Source: Fodinisporobacter ferrooxydans | Lineage (GTDB): Bacteria; Bacillota; Bacilli; Tumebacillales; MYW30-H2 | Length of the DNA stretch: 64,000 nucleotides | Reading direction: 5' to 3' | Assembly (NCBI RefSeq): GCF_022818495.1 | Contig: NZ_CP089291.1 | Coordinates: forward strand, 310,001 to 374,000 | In this document: positions 3,698 through 39,887 of the stretch, piece by piece | Layout: every line of letters begins with the position of its first letter | How positions within the stretch are numbered: position 1 is the stretch's first letter | Program-made: the position numbers and the translations under genes | The notes under the pieces: model-generated | The model's database searches: none | What the model was told of the DNA's origin: nothing | The model's input: only the letters and a program-made list of their open reading frames with translations

Positions 3698-4040
3698 TGT
3701 TTTTATTGTACCCTGAGCAAACGGTTATTTCAAGTTTTTTATTCTACCCCAACTTCCTCCAGGAATAACCAATTTTCAGTGGTTTTCCATTTATCTTTCA
3801 ATTTCCTTCATCAAAGCCAATAGGGGTACGTGAGTACATCACCCCCATATTAAGCACGCCCAATGTATTCCAATTAAGATAGTAGTTGCTGGCAAGGGAG
3901 CTGAGTTAAAGGAGATTATTTTAAAAAATTATTTAGAATAGTCATTGATTTTTAGGCTTCCTCACTGTCTAGCAGGATTGGAAGTTGAGCATACTGAGAT
4001 TATCAACTAGTAAAGGAGATAATTTCGAATGGAACTTATA
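3698..4040. other. Non-coding stretch upstream of araA with a gene remnant
   Basis: About 340 bp with no intact gene. A short plus-strand frame around 3866-3949 (ending ELKEIILKNYLE, stop) looks like the tail of a lost gene. AAGGAG and ATG near 4014-4033 start a frame that is interrupted at once by the IS3 element. Confidence 0.4.
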
Positions 4041-4091
4041 TAGTGGTCCCCAGAAACTAAACAACTCAGAAGGGACCGATTAAGCTACAAT

Positions 4092-4391
4092 ATGAGTATG
4101 AGAAAACATTATTCGGCATCATTCAAAGCAGAAGTCGTCTTGGAACTACTCAAAGAAGAAAAAACTATCGCTCAGATTTCATCTGAATACGGTGTGCACG
4201 TCACGATGCTCCACCGTTGGAAGAACACTGCCGTAGAGAATATGTCAAGCCTGTTTGAGGACGAAGGCAAGAAGAACGCCACCCTCAAGAAGGAGCATGA
4301 AAAAGAAACGTCTGAACTCTATGCGAAAATCGGTCGCTTAACCACGGAGGTTGAGTGGCTTAAAAAAAAATCTGGCATCAAACCGAACTAG
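4092..4391 (+). CDS. IS3-family transposase OrfA (helix-turn-helix protein)
   Basis: This 99-residue protein has the orfA N-terminal helix-turn-helix (HYSASFKAEVVLELLKEEKT, then HVTMLHRWK) and a Leu/Glu/Lys-rich coiled-coil tail (ELYAKIGRLTTEVEWLKKKS). It binds the element ends. It overlaps orfB by about 40 bases in another frame. The overlap contains AAAAAAAAA near 4361-4369, the usual type of slippery run for the -1 frameshift that makes the OrfAB transposase. Confidence 0.88.
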   Translation: MSMRKHYSASFKAEVVLELLKEEKTIAQISSEYGVHVTMLHRWKNTAVENMSSLFEDEGKKNATLKKEHEKETSELYAKIGRLTTEVEWLKKKSGIKPN

Positions 4392-5280
4392 AGATGATAG
4401 AGTTGCTATGGTCGATCACGATAGTGAGAAACTTTCTATTTCTAGGCAGGCAGAGTTACTCAGCCTGAATCGTTCGAGCCTTTACTACAACCCTGTGAGC
4501 GTCTCTGACGAGGAGATCCGTCTCCGGCGACGCATCGACGAGATATACACAGATCGGCCAGTCTCAGGAAGTCGTTACATTACGGCGATCCTGCGGCGAG
4601 AGGGCTGGGCCATCAACCGCAAGCGTGTCGTACGCTGCATGAGGGAAATGGGGATTGCCGGTGTGAGCCCTAGTCCGAATCTGAGTAAACGGAACCTGGC
4701 CCACAAGATTTATCCCTATCTGCTTAGAGGCGTTAAGGCCAGTCACCCCAATCATGTCTGGTCAATCGACATCACCTATATCCGCCTCAAGCGTGGATGG
4801 ATGTATCTTGTCGCCGTGATTGACTTGTATTCCCGCTATATTGTGAGTTGGGAGTTGGATCAGACACTGGAGATCGACTTCGTGCTGAAGGCCACTCAGA
4901 CGGCTTTGGGGCATGCGAAGCCAGAGATTTGGAACAGCGACCAAGGCAGTCATTTCACCAGTCCACAGTACACGGATATACTCAAGCAAGCTAGCGTCCG
5001 AATTAGCATGGACGGAAAGAATCGAGCTGTGGATAATATCTTTATTGAAAGATTTTGGCGAACGCTCAAGTACCAGGAAGTATACACAAAAGAATACGCC
5101 ACACCACGGGAGGCGCGGGAATCAATCAGAAAATTCGTATACAAGTACAATCACGAACGGCCACACCAATCGCTCAACTATCACACGCCTGCTGGGATTT
5201 ACCTGGATGGCATGAAACCTGAGGATCCGATTCCTACTTCTTCTCGGCAAAATACATATTCAGGAAAGGAGATTGCTTAG
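4351..5280 (+). CDS. IS3-family transposase OrfB (DDE catalytic domain)
   Basis: This 309-residue frame is the catalytic half of the IS3 transposase and is normally made as an OrfAB fusion by frameshifting. It shows the HTH_21 domain (IDEIYTDRPVSGSRYITAIL) and an rve integrase core. Catalytic residues are the Asp in HVWSIDITYI, the Asp in IWNSDQGSHF, and the Glu in NIFIERFWRTLKYQEVY. The C-terminal NHERPHQSLNYHTPAGIY is typical. The native start is probably inside orfA through frameshifting, so the coordinate start is only the open-frame ATG. Confidence 0.9.
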   Translation: MSGLKKNLASNRTRDDRVAMVDHDSEKLSISRQAELLSLNRSSLYYNPVSVSDEEIRLRRRIDEIYTDRPVSGSRYITAILRREGWAINRKRVVRCMREMGIAGVSPSPNLSKRNLAHKIYPYLLRGVKASHPNHVWSIDITYIRLKRGWMYLVAVIDLYSRYIVSWELDQTLEIDFVLKATQTALGHAKPEIWNSDQGSHFTSPQYTDILKQASVRISMDGKNRAVDNIFIERFWRTLKYQEVYTKEYATPREARESIRKFVYKYNHERPHQSLNYHTPAGIYLDGMKPEDPIPTSSRQNTYSGKEIA

Positions 5281-5411
5281 CAACAAAGGGATGAAAGAAA
5301 ACGAACAGGGGAAGCCGCTTCGCTCCTCCCCTCTGGCCTACGGCCATTCACCCCTCCCACTCCTCCTAAAAAGAGGATAGGAACAGGGAAAACTGGACTA
5401 TAGCTTAGAGA

Positions 5412-6251
5412 TTAAAAATTGTTGTCTTGACAAATGGGGCCATCATACGGTGTCCCTCCTTGGATAGAATCTTGCTTTTCCTGATGGATTCGTCGAATAA
5501 TTGGCTCACAATACTTGATCGATCTTACGCGGTCTCCCTGAAAGCGCGGTTGGTAGCGTGTGAAGGCGATATCAATCCCTTCAAGAATCACAACAGTTGC
5601 GATTCCGTCAGCAAGCATCTGCCGAATTCACTCATAATCACCGCTAGGAAGAAACGCAGCGCCGGTTTTGTTGCAAAAATACGTTTCAATCTGTGAGAGA
5701 GATGATGTTTTTTCATCATCATCTTTTACATCTTTTTTATCTTTATCACTATCATGATTAGATAGGACATTTTTGCCCGATGACTGTGCAGAATTGTGTG
5801 TTCTCTGCTCATCAGATAGGGCAGAATTTCCCTGTCTCTCGTTGTTTGACTGTTCATTTTTGCCTTCTCTGTTAGTGAGAGATCCGGCAGATTTGCCTGC
5901 TCTTTGTGAATGAGATAGGGCATGATTGCTGCTATTCATTTTGGCATAAACTCGATTCGTCACTCGAATGATCTGGCCGTATGGGGCACGCGTCATTCGA
6001 ATGTAGGATAGATCATGAAGCCGATTCAGATTGCGTTTTATCGTATCCTGACTGGATTGAAGCACCAGAGCGATTTCCTGATATTTAATGGGTCTGCCAC
6101 CATGTACGAGTCCCCAGACAATTCCGGTGTCATCCTGTGTCTCTGTTGTCGCATGACTTGCACACCATAAAAGTTCCCAGATCGCAGGCCCAATCTTCAA
6201 ACGGTGTAAGAAAAGATCTTCACCCACTGATATCAAGGAGTGGAAATGCAC
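5412..6251 (-). pseudogene. DnaD-like phage/plasmid replication-initiation protein, split by one in-frame TGA
   Basis: Read on the minus strand from 6251, a 207-codon frame ends at TGA (5628-5630). The same frame then continues for about 72 more codons to 5412. Before the stop the protein has a winged helix (RPIKYQEIALVLQSSQDTIKRNLNRL) and a low-complexity acidic linker rich in Ser, Asn and Lys. Beyond the stop comes IRQMLADGIATVVILEGIDIAF...YCEPIIRRIH, the C-terminal fold of DnaD-like replisome organisers. A CGA to TGA change would explain the break. Such proteins load helicase in phages and plasmids; the next genes are phage-type regulators. It may still be made by readthrough, but inactivation is likelier. 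Confidence 0.7.
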
Positions 6252-33110: not shown

Positions 33111-33719
33111 TGTCAACTGAAAATTCCACCACTGTCGCAGTTGAAAACTCCCCCACCTGAGAATAAAAAAATATACATATATGATATGTGTAAATTTGGT
33201 AATTGATGAAGGGAGCCCGAGGGCGACTGGAATCAATTACTAAATTTGCGCCAATGCGAAATTCCCCACAAAGGTTTTATGAGTCAGGAAGTTTTATTAA
33301 CGTTTTTTTATTGCTCCATCCACTCCTTTGTTTCCTTGAGTCGATATGAGTTACCATTCATATTAATAAGGTAGGATTTGTGCGTGAGTCTATCGACCAT
33401 TGCTGCTGTAAGTACTGGGTCGTGAAATATCTCACTCCATCTTTCAAAAGATAAATTGGTTGTAATAATAGTTGATTTTCTACCTGTTCTTAGAGATAAA
33501 TGGGTGAATAAGAGTTCAGAGCCTTCTTTATCGAAAGAGATATAGCCGAGCTCATCAGCTATCACCAGATCATATTTCGCAAACTTGTTTCCAAAAGAAC
33601 GTAGCGTCTGTTTAGATCGACTTTCTTTTAATTGAGTAATGAGCGAAGGGACGGAGGTAAATAAGACCTTATATTCCTCCATACAAGCTTTTATCCCAAG
33701 CCCAATCGAAATATGCGTT
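33111..33719 (-). mobile_element. IS21-family remnant A (right part, with istB 3' half)
   Basis: The outer end TGTCAACTGAAAATTCC at 33111 looks like an IS21 terminus. It is followed inward by the istB 3' half on the minus strand. istA and the istB 5' half are missing; the remnant stops at the RIT core site. Confidence 0.65.
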
Positions 33720-33724
33720 TTTCC
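33308..33724 (-). pseudogene. istB ATPase, C-terminal half (IS21 copy A)
   Basis: The minus-strand frame begins at Gly-Lys-Thr-His (GKTHISIGLG, the end of Walker A). It continues with FTSVPSLITQLKES, Walker B YDLVIADELGYISF, and RTGRKSTIITTNLSFERWSEIF...MVDRLTHKSYLINMNGNSYR, stop 33308. The front 100 residues, including the start of Walker A, are replaced by the RIT element. IstB is the DNA-bound ATPase that helps the IS21 transposase. Truncated and inactive. Confidence 0.85.
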
Positions 33725-33751
33725 ATTATGGTAATTTTTCCATAATGGAAA
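33720..33751. repeat. RIT left recombination core
   Basis: TTTCCATTATGG and CCATAATGGAAA, perfect 12-bp inverted arms, surround the 8-bp spacer TAATTTTT. The layout is that of a tyrosine-recombinase crossover site. Confidence 0.75.
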
Positions 33752-33881
33752 TTATCGAAAGTATTTAGTTATGGAAAGAACTGAGCGTATATCCCGTAAC
33801 ATCAATGATTATTCATTGATTTCTTTCCATAACACCTCAGAATAGATCATGAATTTAATCATGTCTATTGGAGGTAAGCCC

Positions 33882-35123
33882 ATGGAAACAAGAAAACTGA
33901 TTGATGAACTCGCGGCGGAGGTCATAACAGAACTTGAGCGATTGAATTACGCATATAACACCTTATGTGGATTGCGTGCTTCGTTCAAAAGGATCTGTGC
34001 ATTCGCACGAGACAGAAATGTGCAATTTTTTTCCGAGGACTTTGGAAAAGAATATTTGAAAGAAAAATACGGCTGCACAATAGATTACTATCTAGATACC
34101 TTCCCCAAAAAAGCTGAACAAGCCATTCGCTCAGTCCGGCTTCTCGGCGATTACCAACTTCATGGTGTTGTCATTCGCAGGATCAAGAAGCGCAAGGGGT
34201 ATATGAAGCCACCACAGTTTGAGAAGGCTCTGACCGCGTACGAAAAAGAATGCGAAAGCAACGACTACTCCCTACGGGGCATGCGTACCAGACTGCAGCG
34301 ATTATTCTTTTTTGTCGATTATCTGTCACTACGCAAGGTGATGGGCTTTAGCGAAATCACGCCTGAAATCATCTCAGATTATGTCATTAGTATTTGTCCA
34401 AATCATGAAAAAAGTATCGCGTCAATACTGACTACTTTGAGAGTGTTCTTGAGGTTTCTCTATCTGCACGGATACATCAAAGAAGACCTATCGCTTAGCA
34501 TGCCAAAGCAGACTAAATATAGATACCCCGCTGTTCCCTCTACCTGGGAGCCGGACGAGGTAAAACGGATGCTTGGTGCTATTGATCGGGCAAGCCCTGT
34601 CGGCAAACGAGACTATGCTATCCTTCTTTTGGTTGCAAAGCTTGGAATACGGGCCGGCGATATTAAGGCGTTGAAACTCTCGGATTTAAATTGGACTTCC
34701 AAAACTATCACCATTACACAGGAAAAAACAAAAGTCGAAGTTACTTATCCAATTCTGCACGACGTGGGCTGGGCATTAATCGATTATCTCCAACATGCCC
34801 GCCCTGTCTGCGATACACCCTATATATTTGTTCGCCTAAATGCCCCTTTTGAAGCCTTCGGTGAAAACGCCAATCTCCATAACATTATTACAAAATACAC
34901 ACGCTTGGCTGGAATTACTGTTCCTCTCGGGAAACGGCACGGTCTCCATTCGTTAAGGCACTCACTAGCGAGTACGCTTTTGGAACAGGGAGCATCCCTT
35001 GCCGTTATCTCTGAAATCCTAGGTCATGTAGACTCGAAGTCTACTTCCGTTTATCTGCACACCGATATGAAAGGGCTAATGTCCTGTGCGCTTGATCCGG
35101 AGGAGGTGATGCTTCATGACTGA
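33882..35123 (+). CDS. RIT tyrosine recombinase A
   Basis: A 413-residue protein from ATG 33882, behind GGAGG at seven bases; upstream in-frame ATGs have no such site. N-terminal SAM-like DNA-binding region, then the phage-integrase catalytic domain: Arg in KLGIRAGDIKALKLSDL, the HSLRH segment (LHSLRHSLAST), ILGHVDSKSTSVYLHT with His and the nucleophile Tyr. The catalytic set is therefore complete. It probably acts with the next two recombinases on the element cores. It overlaps the next gene by eight bases. Confidence 0.9.
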   Translation: METRKLIDELAAEVITELERLNYAYNTLCGLRASFKRICAFARDRNVQFFSEDFGKEYLKEKYGCTIDYYLDTFPKKAEQAIRSVRLLGDYQLHGVVIRRIKKRKGYMKPPQFEKALTAYEKECESNDYSLRGMRTRLQRLFFFVDYLSLRKVMGFSEITPEIISDYVISICPNHEKSIASILTTLRVFLRFLYLHGYIKEDLSLSMPKQTKYRYPAVPSTWEPDEVKRMLGAIDRASPVGKRDYAILLLVAKLGIRAGDIKALKLSDLNWTSKTITITQEKTKVEVTYPILHDVGWALIDYLQHARPVCDTPYIFVRLNAPFEAFGENANLHNIITKYTRLAGITVPLGKRHGLHSLRHSLASTLLEQGASLAVISEILGHVDSKSTSVYLHTDMKGLMSCALDPEEVMLHD

Positions 35124-36102
35124 ATCTCGCCGGTACAAGAGTTCACTGTCCGTCCCAATTGAAGGCTACATCGCTGAGAAGCAGGCTCTTGGGTATGCAT
35201 TTAAGAAAGGTACCGCTTTGCTTAAAAATTTTGATTCTTACGCGCACAGCCACAACCTGACTGAGGCCGTTCTAAGTAAGCAATTGGTGATGGAATGGAC
35301 TGCTCGCAAGCCCAATGAATCCCTATCCACCCAATGTGGTAGGATTTCATTGCTGCGGGGGTTGGCAGAGTACATGAATCGCGTAGGTTATTCAGCGTAT
35401 GTATATCCCAAAGCCATGAACACTGTAAACAGATATACTTACATCCCTTATATATTTTCGAATAACGAAGTGAAACGAATATTTGAGGGGTGTGATCAAT
35501 TTCCGCCAAACAACTGCACGCCTAATCGGCATTTGGTCTTGCCGCTATTACTTCGTATGCTTTACGGATGCGGTCTCCGAATTTCCGAGGCGGTGCAATT
35601 AACTATACAAGATGTCGATCTGAAAAATGGTTCCTTATACATTCGTAATACTAAATTCAACAAAGAGCGGATATTACCTATGTCAGAAAGTCTCAAAGAG
35701 CGATGCCGGGAATATTGTAAAACTGCCGACATCGGTAAGCTGGGGAACCCGTACTTCTTCCCTTCTCCGTATAGGGGACATTATTCTGAGGCAACCCTGT
35801 ACAAGCTCTTTAGGGATGTGCTCCGGAAAGCAAGCATTTCACATCTGGGGAGGGGAAAAGGCCCCCGCATTCATGATTTTCGACATACTTTCGCCGTAAA
35901 TTGCTTGAAAAAGTGGGTTGTGGACGGAAGGGATCTTAATAACTGTCTTCCTTATCTTTCGGCTTATCTCGGTCATGAAGACATTCGTGGTAGTCAAAGA
36001 TATTTGCGGCTGACCGCCGATTTGTATCCCGACCTAATAAGTAAAATCGAAAAAAGCTGCTCATACATCATTCCGGAGGTGAAACCGTATGAAGCAGACT
36101 GA
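35116..36102 (+). CDS. RIT tyrosine recombinase B
   Basis: A 328-residue protein behind GGAGGTGATG. Catalytic domain: Arg in GCGLRISEAVQLTIQDVD, RIHDFRHTFAV (His-x-x-Arg), and YLGHEDIRGSQRYLRL with the terminal His and Tyr. The N-terminal domain (YIAEKQALGYAFKKGTALLK) is the typical core-binding helix bundle of the second RIT protein. Overlap with both neighbours (8 and 14 bases) indicates coupled translation in the fixed RIT order. Confidence 0.9.
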   Translation: MTESRRYKSSLSVPIEGYIAEKQALGYAFKKGTALLKNFDSYAHSHNLTEAVLSKQLVMEWTARKPNESLSTQCGRISLLRGLAEYMNRVGYSAYVYPKAMNTVNRYTYIPYIFSNNEVKRIFEGCDQFPPNNCTPNRHLVLPLLLRMLYGCGLRISEAVQLTIQDVDLKNGSLYIRNTKFNKERILPMSESLKERCREYCKTADIGKLGNPYFFPSPYRGHYSEATLYKLFRDVLRKASISHLGRGKGPRIHDFRHTFAVNCLKKWVVDGRDLNNCLPYLSAYLGHEDIRGSQRYLRLTADLYPDLISKIEKSCSYIIPEVKPYEAD

Positions 36103-37114
36103 TTTTGCGAAGACGCTTGCTCGGTATCTGACAGATTTTCTGCCCGGACAGAGAAACGTCAGCACCAATACGATTAAATCCTACCGCGATACCTTCAAGC
36201 AATATCTTAAGTTCATGCAAGAGGAACATCAGATCAGGCCGGAAAAGATTTCGTTCACTTCAGTGACCATGTCAAGTATTAAAGATTTTTTAAACTGGCT
36301 CGAATCTTCTAAAAGTGTGAGTACCAGCACCCGGAACCAGCGGTTAGCTGCCATTCACAGTTTCTTCAGATATGCACAGTGCGAGAATCCAGAAATCCTA
36401 TTTGAGAGCCAAAAAATACTCGGCATTCCCTTTAAGAAAAAGCAACAACAGACAATAGCACATCTCACTAAGAATCAACTTGCCTATTTGTTCGAACAAC
36501 CTGATACATCCACGAAAAGAGGGCGCCGCGATTTGGCATTAATGGTCGTTTTATACGATGCTGGCGCAAGAGTCCAAGAATTGATCGACCTAAAGGTCTG
36601 TGACGTAAGATTGGCCCAACCCGCAACAATCACTTTGACCGGCAAAGGCAACAAAAAAAGGAACATTCCGATTATGGATAAGACTCGAAGCATCCTTGAA
36701 AACTATATGGCTGAAAACCATCTTCTTGAAAACGGGCGACAGCAAAGTCCCTTGTTTCACAATAGTAGATACCAACCGTTTACTAGACCTGGTATCACAT
36801 ACATCCTCGAAAAGTATTTCAAGCAAGCAAAGCTTAGGAACCTTGATGAGGGATTTCCAAATAAACTGCATCCGCATATGCTGAGGCACTCAAAAGCTCT
36901 ACATCTGTTGGAATCCGGAGTCAATCTGATCTATATCCGTGATTTATTGGGGCATGTGAGTGTGACAACAACTGAGATTTATTTGAGGTTTGATACGGAG
37001 CTCAAAAGAAAGGCTTTAGAAGCAGCATATCCTCAAGTAAGCAGTGAGGATACTCCGGAATGGGAGGAAAACACGGATATCCTTCAGTGGTTGCAGGACC
37101 TTTGCCATTCATAA
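36089..37114 (+). CDS. RIT tyrosine recombinase C
   Basis: A 341-residue XerC/D-like protein behind GGAGGTGAAACC. SAM-like N-domain (TIKSYRDTFKQYLKFM), Arg in YDAGARVQELIDLKVCDV, HMLRHSKALHLLESG (His-x-x-Arg), and LLGHVSVTTTEIYLRF with His and Tyr. It has a longer C-terminal tail than B. Intact. It completes the trio; the right end repeat begins 58 bp downstream. Confidence 0.9.
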   Translation: MKQTDFAKTLARYLTDFLPGQRNVSTNTIKSYRDTFKQYLKFMQEEHQIRPEKISFTSVTMSSIKDFLNWLESSKSVSTSTRNQRLAAIHSFFRYAQCENPEILFESQKILGIPFKKKQQQTIAHLTKNQLAYLFEQPDTSTKRGRRDLALMVVLYDAGARVQELIDLKVCDVRLAQPATITLTGKGNKKRNIPIMDKTRSILENYMAENHLLENGRQQSPLFHNSRYQPFTRPGITYILEKYFKQAKLRNLDEGFPNKLHPHMLRHSKALHLLESGVNLIYIRDLLGHVSVTTTEIYLRFDTELKRKALEAAYPQVSSEDTPEWEENTDILQWLQDLCHS

Positions 37115-37199
37115 TTATTATAGAAAGATTTTCGGAAATGCATAGAGATGATTCTAAGGCGCTACCGAAAATCTTTCCATAACTAAATACTTTCGATAA

Positions 37200-37231
37200 T
37201 TTCCGTTATGGTAATTTTTCCATAACGGAAA
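37200..37231. repeat. RIT right recombination core
   Basis: TTTCCGTTATGG and CCATAACGGAAA surround the same spacer TAATTTTT in the same orientation as the left core. The final GGAAA is also the Gly-Lys pair of the istB Walker A motif. Confidence 0.75.
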
Positions 37232-37646
37232 GACCCACCTCTCGGTGGGGTTAGGTATGGAAGCCCTGGAGAGAGGCCATCGCGTCAGCTTTGTGGCTAT
37301 GGATACCCTCCTCCATTTACTCAAGACACAAGACATTACACGAACATCGCAGGCTCGCATGAGACGTATTCTAGGTTCGGATCTTGTGATCATTGACGAT
37401 CTTATGTTCATGGCCATGGATAAGAATGAGTCAAACATATTCTTTCAATTTATTAATAAACTCTATGATCAATCGTCGATCATTCTAACGTCCAATAAGG
37501 GACCAGAGGAATGGGGTGAATTATTGGGCGATCCGGCCATAACTACTGCTATTCTGGATCGAATTTTGCATAAGAGCGAGGTGATACAGTTAAGTGGAGA
37601 TAGCTTCCGTCTCAAACACAGGGAAACCATATTTGGAAACTTTTAG
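37227..37646 (+). pseudogene. istB ATPase, C-terminal half (IS21 copy B)
   Basis: A plus-strand frame begins at GKTHLSVGLGMEALERGHRV (end of Walker A). It runs through SDLVIIDDLMFMAM (Walker B) and SIILTSNKGPEEWGELLGDP...LDRILHKSEVIQLSGDSFR to stop 37646. It is clearly a different IS21 subgroup from copy A (different Walker B and C-terminus). Yet it is cut at the same codons, where the RIT core begins. Inactive remnant. Confidence 0.85.
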
Positions 37647-37696
37647 GTGTTAAAACTTATTTAGCGAAATCTGCTCAAAGGTACTTGACGGTTACA
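37227..37696 (+). mobile_element. IS21-family remnant B (right part)
   Basis: It contains the istB 3' half and ends near TTGACGGTTACA (37685-37696), which on the other strand reads TGTAACCGTCAA, an IS21-type terminus. It abuts a truncated IS1595 transposase, showing it inserted there. Confidence 0.6.
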
Positions 37697-38195
37697 AAAG
37701 GCCAACGAGAACTTGATTTTTATCGGTTCCACGGCCACGTTTTCCACCTTCTGTTGGGGAACCGATATACATGTCATCGAGTTCCACATAACCGGACAAC
37801 ATATAAAAAGAATCTCGATCCCCCATTGCTTTCCGGATTTTATGCAGCATGAGCCAAGCGGTTGGATACGAGATCTCTAATTCTCTCGTCAACAGGCTCG
37901 CAGAAACACCACGTTTATCATGGGAGACGAGATAAATCGCATTGAACCATTTCCGCAGGGAAGTATGTGTTTTTTCAAAGATGGTTCCCACACAAACAGT
38001 GGTTTGATGCCCGCAATTCCTGCATTCATAAAGCGGAAGCCGACGCGTTTGGATTTTATAAGCTGCTGTATGCTGGCAGTTTGGACATACGAATCCATTT
38101 GGCCATTTCATGTTAAACAGATGTTCATGACAAGCTTCTTCCGTTGAAAATTGCTTTTGAAACTGAATCAGTGTTAATGAATTTTGCTTCGCCAT
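37692..38195 (-). pseudogene. IS1595-family transposase, C-terminally truncated
   Basis: The start is M at 38195 (MAKQNSLTLIQFQKQF). A zinc ribbon follows (CPNCQHTAAYKIQ ... CRNCGHQTTV), then the IS1595 GTIFEKTHTSLRKWFNAIYLV and SYPTAWLMLHKIRKAM, and the first part of the DDE domain (GYVELDDMYIGSP). It stops after NQVLVGLL at the IS21 remnant end. About half the protein, including remaining catalytic residues, is missing. Confidence 0.85.
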
Positions 38196-38206
38196 ACATA
38201 CACCAC

Positions 38207-38244
38207 CGAACGTATTTTGTACCAGTATCGCCAAAATACGTTCG
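38207..38244. repeat. Perfect 13-bp inverted repeat
   Basis: CGAACGTATTTTG and its exact inverse are separated by 12 bases, just upstream of the IS1595 transposase start. It could be an operator or part of the IS end. Confidence 0.55.
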
Positions 38245-38679: not shown

Positions 38680-39887
38680 ATGGCGCAAATTGAAAAAAGA
38701 GGGGAAGGAACTTATCGTTTAACAATTGAAGCTGGTTTTGATTCCAATGGGAAAAGAAAAAGGCACAGAAAAACAGTAAAAGCAAAAAATATTACAGAAG
38801 CAAGAAAGGAATATGCTAAATTTTTAACTGAAATTGAATCGGGCACTTATATAAAACCTGAGAAAATGACGGTTGATTCATTTGTTAATAATGAATGGCT
38901 TAAAAAATTTGCTGAAACAAATTATTCACCCACAACGTTAAAGAAATATATTGGGCAACTAAATGCTCATATTTTACCTGAGATCGGCCATAAACAATTG
39001 GATGATATAAAACCTCTTCACCTTGTAACATACTTAAATAAACTTGAACAAAACGATATAAGGAAGGATGGTCGTGTAGGGAAGCTTTCAGCCGCAACCA
39101 TAAAAGATATATATAAAATCATGAAAAGTGTTTTTAATAAAGCCGTAGAATGGAAAGTAATTAGTAGTGATCCAATGGATGGAGTGAGCCAACCAAAAGT
39201 AGAACGCAAAAAAATGAAATATTATACATCTGATGAAGCTCAAGAAGTAATCGAAGCCTTATATCAAGAACAAGACCAATGGAAGATGTATTTCTTGGGG
39301 GCTTTCGTCGTGGCGAACTCACCGCATTAGAGTGGTCTGATATCGATTTTGAAAATAATACAATAACAATTCGAAAATCATTAGCATTAACAAAAAATGG
39401 ACAAGCAGTAGTAAAAGATCCGAAGACTGAAGAATCATTCCGTACTGTAGATATGCCTCTTTGGTATATGGAGGAATTAAAAATATATTATCGTGAATGG
39501 ATTAAAGAAAAATTAAAGCTCGGGGATATGTGGCAAGGCGAAGATCACCAATACGTATTCCACGGCGGATTCGGTAAACCATATTATTTCACCGTGCCGA
39601 CAGAACAGTGGAAACGAATTTCAAAACGTCATGGATTGAAACAAATTCGTTTACACGATCTTCGACATACAGCAGGTACATTACTTATAGAAGCTGGATT
39701 GGCACAAGGTATTGATACAGACATTACACTCAAAGCGGTGCAAGAACGTTTGGGCCATAAAGATTTCAAAACCACTGCAGATATATATACCCACGTAACC
39801 AAGAAAGCATCCAAGGCCCTTGCAGAACAATTAGATAAATTTGACCCGAAAAATTTCGTCAACAAGTCGTCAATAACAGCAAAATAA
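38680..39887 (+). pseudogene. Phage-type tyrosine integrase, frameshifted
   Basis: The first frame (38680-39330) has the AP2-like arm-binding N-terminus (EKRGEGTYRLTIEAGFDSNG), the SAM-like domain (WLKKFAETNYSPTTLKKYI) and the catalytic-domain start. The second (to 39887) has the Arg segment GGFRRGELTALEWSDIDFE, LHDLRHTAGTLLIEAG and LGHKDFKTTADIYTHVTKK. One base is gained or lost near 39290-39300. Joined length about 400 matches the family. It ends 60 bp from a tRNA-Pro gene, the typical integration site, so it marks the remains of a prophage or ICE. Confidence 0.85.

What the first reader, a model, noticed from the sequence alone, without database searches (positions are those of the whole stretch)
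33720..37231. RIT element whose core sites coincide with the istB Walker A codons
Seen: three intact, overlapping tyrosine recombinases lie between 33-bp exact inverted repeats and cores with arms TTTCC(A/G)TTATGG and spacer TAATTTTT. On both sides the flanking DNA begins with Gly-Lys-Thr-His codons of istB, pointing outward. The two istB halves belong to clearly different IS21 types. Inferred: the element targets the Walker A coding sequence of IS21 helper ATPases, a conserved site that recurs in many genomes. The present structure arose by recombination between two such insertions.
Basis: partly seen in the sequence, partly recalled or inferred. Interest (0 to 1): 0.88.

Follow-up and report, generated by a model that had tools for sequence, protein, structure and literature searches.

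The report
Transposon homing to IstB Walker A
The window holds a small three-recombinase (RIT) transposon whose relatives repeatedly insert at exactly the same codons, those for the ATP-binding loop of the IS21 helper protein IstB; other RIT lineages each have their own conserved-motif target, so these elements appear to home to the most conserved codons of other mobile elements' genes.

Summary
Three overlapping tyrosine-recombinase genes (RitA, RitB, RitC) lie between 33-bp exact inverted repeats, each flanked by a 32-bp palindromic core. Both flanks then begin at the Gly-Lys-Thr-His codons of two different istB genes (36% identical), pointing outward. Relatives found by recombinase sequence alone support the target claim. 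In the window's clade (23 RitB rows), all 20 with labelled flanks sit at the same istB codon step, although the IstBs are mostly about 30% identical; one further member, with one readable end, is not in istB. RIT targets follow the RIT tree: istB Walker A, istB Walker B, group II intron RT, DDE-transposase Glu motif, amidoligase and others. Normal copies have one core. The window's double-core form with two 3' halves is rare (one other istB case), and six mirror-image copies carry two 5' halves. A predicted 3'-core-3' scar was found in two other genomes. A sister RIT in this genome has an exact empty-site twin. Movement has not been tested in the laboratory, and the one dedicated RIT paper could not be read.

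The parts
33308..33724 (-). 3' part of istB copy A, starting at the Gly codon of Walker A (GKTHISIGLG...), reading outward
   Evidence: Pfam IstB_IS21 E 1.1e-39, profile 105-236; profile 104-236
33720..33725 (.). left outer 6-bp overlap (TGGAAA on the - strand) = first bases of the istB 3' part
   Evidence: parsed
33726..33745 (.). left palindromic core TTATGGTAAT|TTTTCCATAA (two abutting inverted recombinase-site copies)
33746..33751 (+). left inner 6-bp overlap TGGAAA
33752..33778 (+). left terminal repeat: TTATCGAAAG-N7-TTATGGAAAG (two direct 10-bp sites, 17-bp period), part of the 33-bp exact inverted repeat
33849..35123 (+). ritA tyrosine recombinase (likely true start 33882)
   Evidence: Phage_integrase E 1.1e-26; many homologues align only from residue 12
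35116..36102 (+). ritB tyrosine recombinase
   Evidence: Phage_integrase E 3.3e-25; catalytic positions R155, H253/R256, H287 and Y296 invariant in 11 relatives
36089..37114 (+). ritC tyrosine recombinase
   Evidence: Phage_integrase E 4e-31; 45% identical to a trio member on C. necator pHG1
37173..37199 (-). right terminal repeat, exact inverted copy of the left one
37200..37205 (-). right inner 6-bp overlap (CGGAAA)
37206..37225 (.). right palindromic core, direct repeat of the left core
37226..37231 (+). right outer 6-bp overlap CGGAAA = first bases of the istB 3' part
37227..37646 (+). 3' part of istB copy B, starting at the Gly codon of Walker A (GKTHLSVGLG...), reading outward
   Evidence: Pfam IstB_IS21 E 1.4e-41, profile 104-236; 36% identical to copy A

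Best explanation
The window holds a RIT transposon (3,448 bp between its outermost sites) of a lineage that integrates site-specifically at the Walker A codons of istB. The inferred mobile form is a circle, IR_R-o-palindrome-o-IR_L, in which each 6-bp overlap 'o' (NGGNAA) lies between inverted 10-bp recombinase sites (CTTTNCATAA-o-TTATCGAAAG). Strand exchange at either o with the matching 6 bp of istB (...GTN GGN AAR ACN CAY...) puts the element in. The istB 5' part then joins one inverted repeat directly, and the palindrome always ends up against the istB 3' part, whichever way the element points. The overlap at the direct junction is the target's own; the overlap beyond the palindrome is carried in from the circle. 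Because an inserted element keeps a second, inner exchange site, it can also recombine with a second istB. That yields elements with two 5' parts and a small 3'-palindrome-3' scar. The window copy, with two palindromes and two 3' parts, is a rearranged product of this system. Shown: target and position in many independent insertions, anatomy, one exact filled/empty pair for a sister RIT in this genome, and scars. Inferred: the circle, the roles of the three proteins, and the exact route to the double-palindrome form.
For: Relatives were found by RitB protein sequence only, so sampling was blind to flanks. Rejoined empty sites restore intact IstB ORFs cut at G-(V/T)^GKTH in 16 different one-palindrome insertions, confirmed as IstB_IS21 by Pfam in six of seven tested at E 2e-62 to 4e-92 (the seventh, L102, is a weaker DnaC/IstB-like match). 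One rejoined site aligns without gaps across the junction to annotated intact istB genes. In 30 no-palindrome ends (a few duplicated), GG/GG/GG/AA are invariant while wobble bases vary. IstB targets are a median 31% identical; L057 and L100 have 96% identical RitB but 31% identical IstB. On a 122-row RitB tree, target labels need 27 changes against 72 when shuffled (0 of 200 as low); the window clade has support 100/99. Same-genome pair: the rejoined 1,806-nt site of sister RIT L092 is identical to an intact copy, with 6 bp CAAAGG at the junction. Overlap bookkeeping: four Neobacillus copies share one outer overlap (GCCTCC) but have four different direct-junction overlaps, and L077/L078 fit donor and daughter exactly. 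Predicted 3'-palindrome-3' scars were found in 2 of 15 genomes (3 sites), with 0 control matches.
Against: No movement has been observed, and the circle is inferred. One clade member (L097) has a visible end outside istB. One Walker A insertion (L102) is in a DnaC/IstB-like protein rather than a clear IstB. The istB arms flanking the 6 bp do not resemble the element's own sites, so what reads the target is unknown. The scar halves in the Gracilibacillus genome (G781) are not clearly the partners of that genome's two 5' parts. In the Desulforamulus genome (G785), which has two scars, the RIT L114 looks like a normal insertion with a deletion. Some target labels of contig-end loci were assigned by eye.
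Confidence: 0.86

Rival explanations
1. The double-palindrome, two-3'-part form arose by homologous recombination between two separate RIT insertions in different istB genes; the element itself needs no second-target reaction.
For: It explains why the left and right overlaps differ (TGGAAA and CGGAAA), why both palindromes have the native orientation relative to the inverted repeats in the window and in L139, and why the opposite class with two 5' parts exists (L068, L096, L105, L106, L107, L133).
Against: It predicts equal numbers of the two classes, but among istB Walker A insertions there are 6 with two 5' parts and 2 with two 3' parts. It does not by itself give 3'-palindrome-3' scars. No second copy of this RIT remains in this genome.
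Confidence: 0.4
2. The window form arose when a RIT circle inserted into a pre-existing 3'-palindrome-3' scar, whose palindrome-o-3' sites are natural partners for the circle.
For: Such scars exist (L173-L175), and the product would have exactly the window's layout.
Against: The palindrome orientation would match the native one only half the time per case, yet it does so in both informative cases. No scar is seen in this genome.
Confidence: 0.35
3. RIT and IS21 merely travel together by descent (one ancient insertion), so the shared site does not show target specificity.
For: A few pairs are related in both partners (L103 and L104: RitB 94%, IstB 86%).
Against: RitB 96% with IstB 31% (L057 and L100); median IstB identity 31%; both element orientations occur; other RIT clades hit other genes at conserved motifs.
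Confidence: 0.03
4. The istB match at the flanks is accidental sequence created by the palindrome (GGAAA).
For: The Gly-Lys codons lie inside the repeat unit.
Against: Both flanks match IstB over about 132 residues at E about 1e-40, both starting at profile position 104-105.
Confidence: 0.01

Closest known systems
RIT (recombinase in trio) elements, Van Houdt 2009/2012, Ricker 2013
   Same: Three overlapping tyrosine recombinases in the order A-B-C, about 3.5 kb, an inverted repeat of about 28-34 bp and an overlapping palindrome at the ends. Published copies interrupt radC, an IS66 tnpA and a Tn6049-like transposase (PMC2864759, PMC3414803).
   Different: PMC3414803 found the ends hard to fit to known recombinase sites. 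A 2023 table lists RIT target specificity, empty site and mode of movement as not tested (PMC10214605). Here the 6-bp exchange site, the one-sided palindrome and lineage-specific targeting of conserved motif codons are worked out. Ricker 2013 could not be read.
SE elements (strand-biased circularizing integrative elements)
   Same: A 6-bp overlap; the target's 6 bp stays at one junction and the donor's 6 bp is carried to the other (PMC10214605).
   Different: SEs carry four genes (intA, tfp, intB, srap) and cargo; RITs have three recombinases, inverted repeats and a palindrome usable from both sides.
GInt islands
   Same: Several tyrosine recombinases, 6-nt staggered exchange, and repeated use of a conserved gene (ssb) despite low identity among targets (PMC5385486).
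   Different: GInts carry ginD and cargo, and usually do not destroy their target gene.
Tn554-type transposons
   Same: Tyrosine-recombinase transposons with 6-bp transfer and a favoured site in radC (PMC10214605; radC from general knowledge).
   Different: TnpA/B/C gene set; no RIT-type inverted repeats or palindrome are known to me.
Inteins and homing introns in P-loop motifs (general knowledge)
   Same: They occupy the most conserved codons of a gene family.
   Different: They splice out and spare the protein; RITs destroy the gene and use recombinases, not endonucleases.

Membership tests
RIT element | three adjacent, overlapping tyrosine-recombinase genes | tested here: met
   overlaps of 8 and 14 nt, three Phage_integrase matches
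[quoted passage not shown]
   tblastn matches place A, B and C in the same order in about 110 loci; RitC is 45% identical to a C. necator pHG1 trio member
RIT element | total length about 3.5 kb | tested here: met
   3,448 bp between outer sites, 3,512 bp with cores
RIT element | terminal inverted repeats of about 28-34 bp with overlapping palindrome | tested here: met
   33-bp exact inverted repeat and palindromic cores
RIT element | RitA has two core-binding domains, RitC an extra C-terminal helix (PMC8138268) | not tested
   no structure was predicted
RIT element | mobility | tested here: inconclusive
   exact filled/empty pair for a sister RIT in the same genome and independent insertions of near-identical trios, but no experiment
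SE / GInt | fourth gene (srap / ginD) and tfp | tested here: not met
   no further ORF between the inverted repeats other than short ones overlapping the rit genes
SE / GInt | 6-bp overlap with one-sided transfer of donor bases | tested here: met
   inferred from overlaps in Neobacillus copies and L077/L078: works like, not a member
Tn554 family | TnpA, TnpB and TnpC gene set | tested here: not met
   three RIT-type recombinases; no TnpC-like gene

The most novel reading that the evidence does not exclude
RIT elements are motif-homing transposons. Each lineage reads the codons of one near-invariant motif of a widespread, mostly selfish gene family (IstB Walker A or Walker B, group II intron RT, DDE-transposase Glu, amidoligase and others), tolerating wobble bases. 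A palindrome flanked by two exchange sites lets one element join two different target genes, leaving 3'-palindrome-3' scars and rearranging the chromosome between IS copies.
Probability: 0.6. Interest if true: 0.82.

Novelty: new variant of a known kind. Interest (0 to 1): 0.74.

Why it matters
RIT elements have been known since 2009, but a 2023 overview still listed their target choice and mode of movement as untested. The comparison here gives a concrete exchange site, a target rule that follows the RIT tree, and a reason why the sites recur everywhere: the element parasitises the most conserved codons of other mobile elements, which are abundant and dispensable for the host. It makes the role of three recombinases directly testable, explains odd istB and group II intron fragments in genomes, and could be a source of recombinases with built-in recognition of coding motifs.

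Tried and rejected
A viral-contig scan with the window RitB found nothing. Missing istB 5' halves or a second copy of this RIT in the genome: absent. The genome's other IS21 istB has an intact Walker A and is interrupted elsewhere by a DDE transposon, not by a RIT. Intact copies of Neobacillus target introns, sought to prove which overlap is the target's own: none found. Close intact relatives of the L103 and L070 target IS21 were only 69-73% identical, too far to read the wobble bases of the overlap. Pairing the Gracilibacillus scar halves with that genome's two 5' parts was not clean. L114 first looked like a two-5'-part form; it is a normal insertion with a deletion. L098 first looked one-ended; its left end was found 2 kb further out, again in istB. 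A group of RITs (L081, L150, L154, L155, L166) has a different end motif that was not resolved. Papers: nothing found on RIT and istB; Ricker 2013 and Nielsen 2017 are not held.
Full report
OBSERVATION. The element is present as described. Three overlapping ORFs on the + strand (33849-35123, 35116-36102, 36089-37114) all match Phage_integrase. They lie between 33-bp exact inverted repeats, and each end carries a 32-nt palindromic core; the two cores are direct repeats of each other. Beyond each core the sequence reads outward as istB from the Walker A Gly codon: both pieces begin at Pfam IstB_IS21 profile position 104. The pieces are only 36% identical. The genome is one contig of 4.86 Mb; it holds one copy of this element, two core sites and no orphan istB 5' half.

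ANATOMY RE-READ. Comparing ends across about 110 RIT loci shows a constant plan. Each element end is TTATCGAAAG-N7-TTATGGAAAG: two direct 10-bp sites at a 17-bp period. The palindrome is two abutting inverted copies of the same site (TTATGNAAAG|CTTTNCATAA). Between palindrome and terminal repeat lie 6 bp, so the exchange site is CTTTNCATAA-[6 bp]-TTATCGAAAG, the usual layout of a tyrosine-recombinase core.

NORMAL STRUCTURE. Of 68 well-parsed elements, 56 have a palindrome at one end only, 9 at neither end and 3 at both (a few loci are the same element reached twice). For the istB lineage the palindrome always lies on the 3' side of istB, for either element orientation. Rejoining the flanks restores an intact IstB reading frame cut at G-(V/T)^GK(T/S)H. 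Pfam confirms full-length IstB in six of seven tested; the seventh, L102, is a DnaC/IstB-like ATPase with a weaker match. One rejoined site aligns without a gap across the junction to annotated intact istB genes on plasmids. Across 30 no-palindrome ends the GG, GG, GG and AA bases of the motif are invariant while wobble bases vary freely.

INDEPENDENCE. Loci were found by RitB protein sequence only. The IstBs hit are a median 31% identical, and two RITs with 96% identical RitB sit in IstBs that are 31% identical, so this is repeated targeting and not shared descent. On a 122-row RitB tree, target labels need 27 changes against a shuffled mean of 72 (0 of 200 as low). The window falls in a 23-row clade (support 100/99) with 20 istB Walker A members and no labelled member with another target. 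Two of the other three are contigs that end at the element. The third, L097, has a visible left end beside a peptidase-like gene and is an exception.

OTHER LINEAGES. The rule is wider than istB: group II intron RT at PQG^G(x)LSPLL; DDE transposases of IS21 and other families at the catalytic Glu region (HE^KGNVEN, PES^KGKIENVVKY, AAS^KGKIERLF); IstB Walker B (ILD^EMGY); IS66; amidoligase (SCG^IHVHVD); PcfJ (LM^HHCVGGY); TnpA_REP (EEY^RWSSY); a DNA methyltransferase; and a few others. Named plasmid records agree: RITs of Mycetohabitans and Rhizobium sit in IstB Walker B next to istA genes, and those of Rhodococcus and Agrobacterium sit in group II intron RT genes.

DIRECT BEFORE/AFTER PAIR. 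This genome has two copies of a second RIT lineage (L091, L092). The rejoined 1,806-nt site of L092 is identical, with no mismatch, to an intact transposase gene elsewhere in the genome; the 6 bp at the junction are CAAAGG.

BOOKKEEPING OF THE SIX BASES. In Neobacillus PS3-12, four identical RITs in different introns share the same outer overlap (GCCTCC) but have four different overlaps at the palindrome-free junction. The inner overlap of L144 equals the palindrome-free overlap of L143, and L078 follows from L077 in the same way. So the target keeps its own six bases at the palindrome-free junction, and the donor's bases are carried to the far side of the palindrome. The same one-sided rule is reported for SE elements (PMC10214605). 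Consistently, the palindrome-free overlap is NGGNAA in every istB case, whereas the outer one sometimes breaks the Gly codon (TAGTAA in L070, GGTTAA in L072). The link between direct junction and target base could not be checked against a near-identical intact istB.

THE WINDOW'S DOUBLE-PALINDROME FORM. An inserted element retains an inner exchange site. If that site recombines with a second istB, the products are an element with two 5' parts and a 3'-palindrome-3' scar. Six istB Walker A elements with two 5' parts exist (L068, L096, L105, L106, L107, L133), and a plasmid RIT in istB Walker B has istA genes on both sides. The predicted scar was then searched for in 15 genomes: one occurs in the L106 genome and two in the L114 genome, with no control match. 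Pairing of the scar halves with the L106 5' parts was not clean, so the support is for the reaction type, not for one event. The window, with L139, has the opposite form: two palindromes and two 3' parts. It can come from homologous recombination between two insertions, from a tandem intermediate, or from insertion of a circle into a scar. The palindrome orientation in both informative cases slightly favours the first two.

WHAT IS KNOWN. RITs were described with three recombinases, inverted repeats and a palindrome, and with single copies in radC, IS66 tnpA and a transposase (PMC2864759, PMC3414803). A 2023 comparison lists RIT target specificity, empty site and movement as not tested (PMC10214605). 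I found no paper linking RITs to istB or to motif codons, but the dedicated study (Ricker 2013) is not held, so prior report of part of this cannot be excluded. IstB Walker A and Walker B are required for IS21 ATPase function (PMC11208146), so these insertions are expected to inactivate the helper. That a RIT rides along with a complemented IS21 is speculation.

VERDICT. A member of a known element class, with a well-supported and apparently unreported target rule and attachment-site anatomy.

Noticed in passing
L091, L092 (genome positions about 1.447 and 2.041 Mb, outside the window): Second RIT lineage in the same genome, two copies, in DDE transposases; L092 has an exact intact twin of its target in the same genome.
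   Followed up: yes
L018 (genome 4.126-4.136 Mb): The genome's other IS21 istB has an intact Walker A and is interrupted further downstream by the transposon that L092's RIT targets elsewhere.
   Followed up: partly
L173, L174, L175: Two istB 3' parts head to head with only a palindrome between them: predicted recombination scars.
   Followed up: partly
L185, L187 (plasmids of Mycetohabitans and Rhizobium), L087, L104: RITs inserted in the IstB Walker B codons, a second nucleotide-binding motif of the same protein.
   Followed up: partly
L088, L089, L090 (one genome, within 40 kb): RITs near IS66 genes, one with two 5' parts and one with two palindromes, close together in one chromosome; the arrangement was not worked out.
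   Followed up: no
L081, L150, L154, L155, L166: A RIT clade whose ends read GATGGCTATGTGCCTAAAAATAATATGGG and do not fit the TTAT..AAAG site; target unresolved.
   Followed up: no
L015, L035/L112, L037, L094, L109, L132, L155, L161, L171: Draft contigs of 3.40-3.51 kb that consist of one RIT, some with the palindrome attached; either multi-copy elements or circles.
   Followed up: no
L098 about 3871-5770; L123; L060: RITs carrying about 2-kb inserts, between the left repeat and ritA or inside or before ritC.
   Followed up: no
window 38680-39887: A further tyrosine-integrase gene split into two overlapping ORFs in different frames, probably a broken prophage or island integrase.
   Followed up: no
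window 37692-38234: Truncated transposase-like ORF with a zinc-ribbon start (IS1595-like by eye) directly after the right istB part.
   Followed up: no
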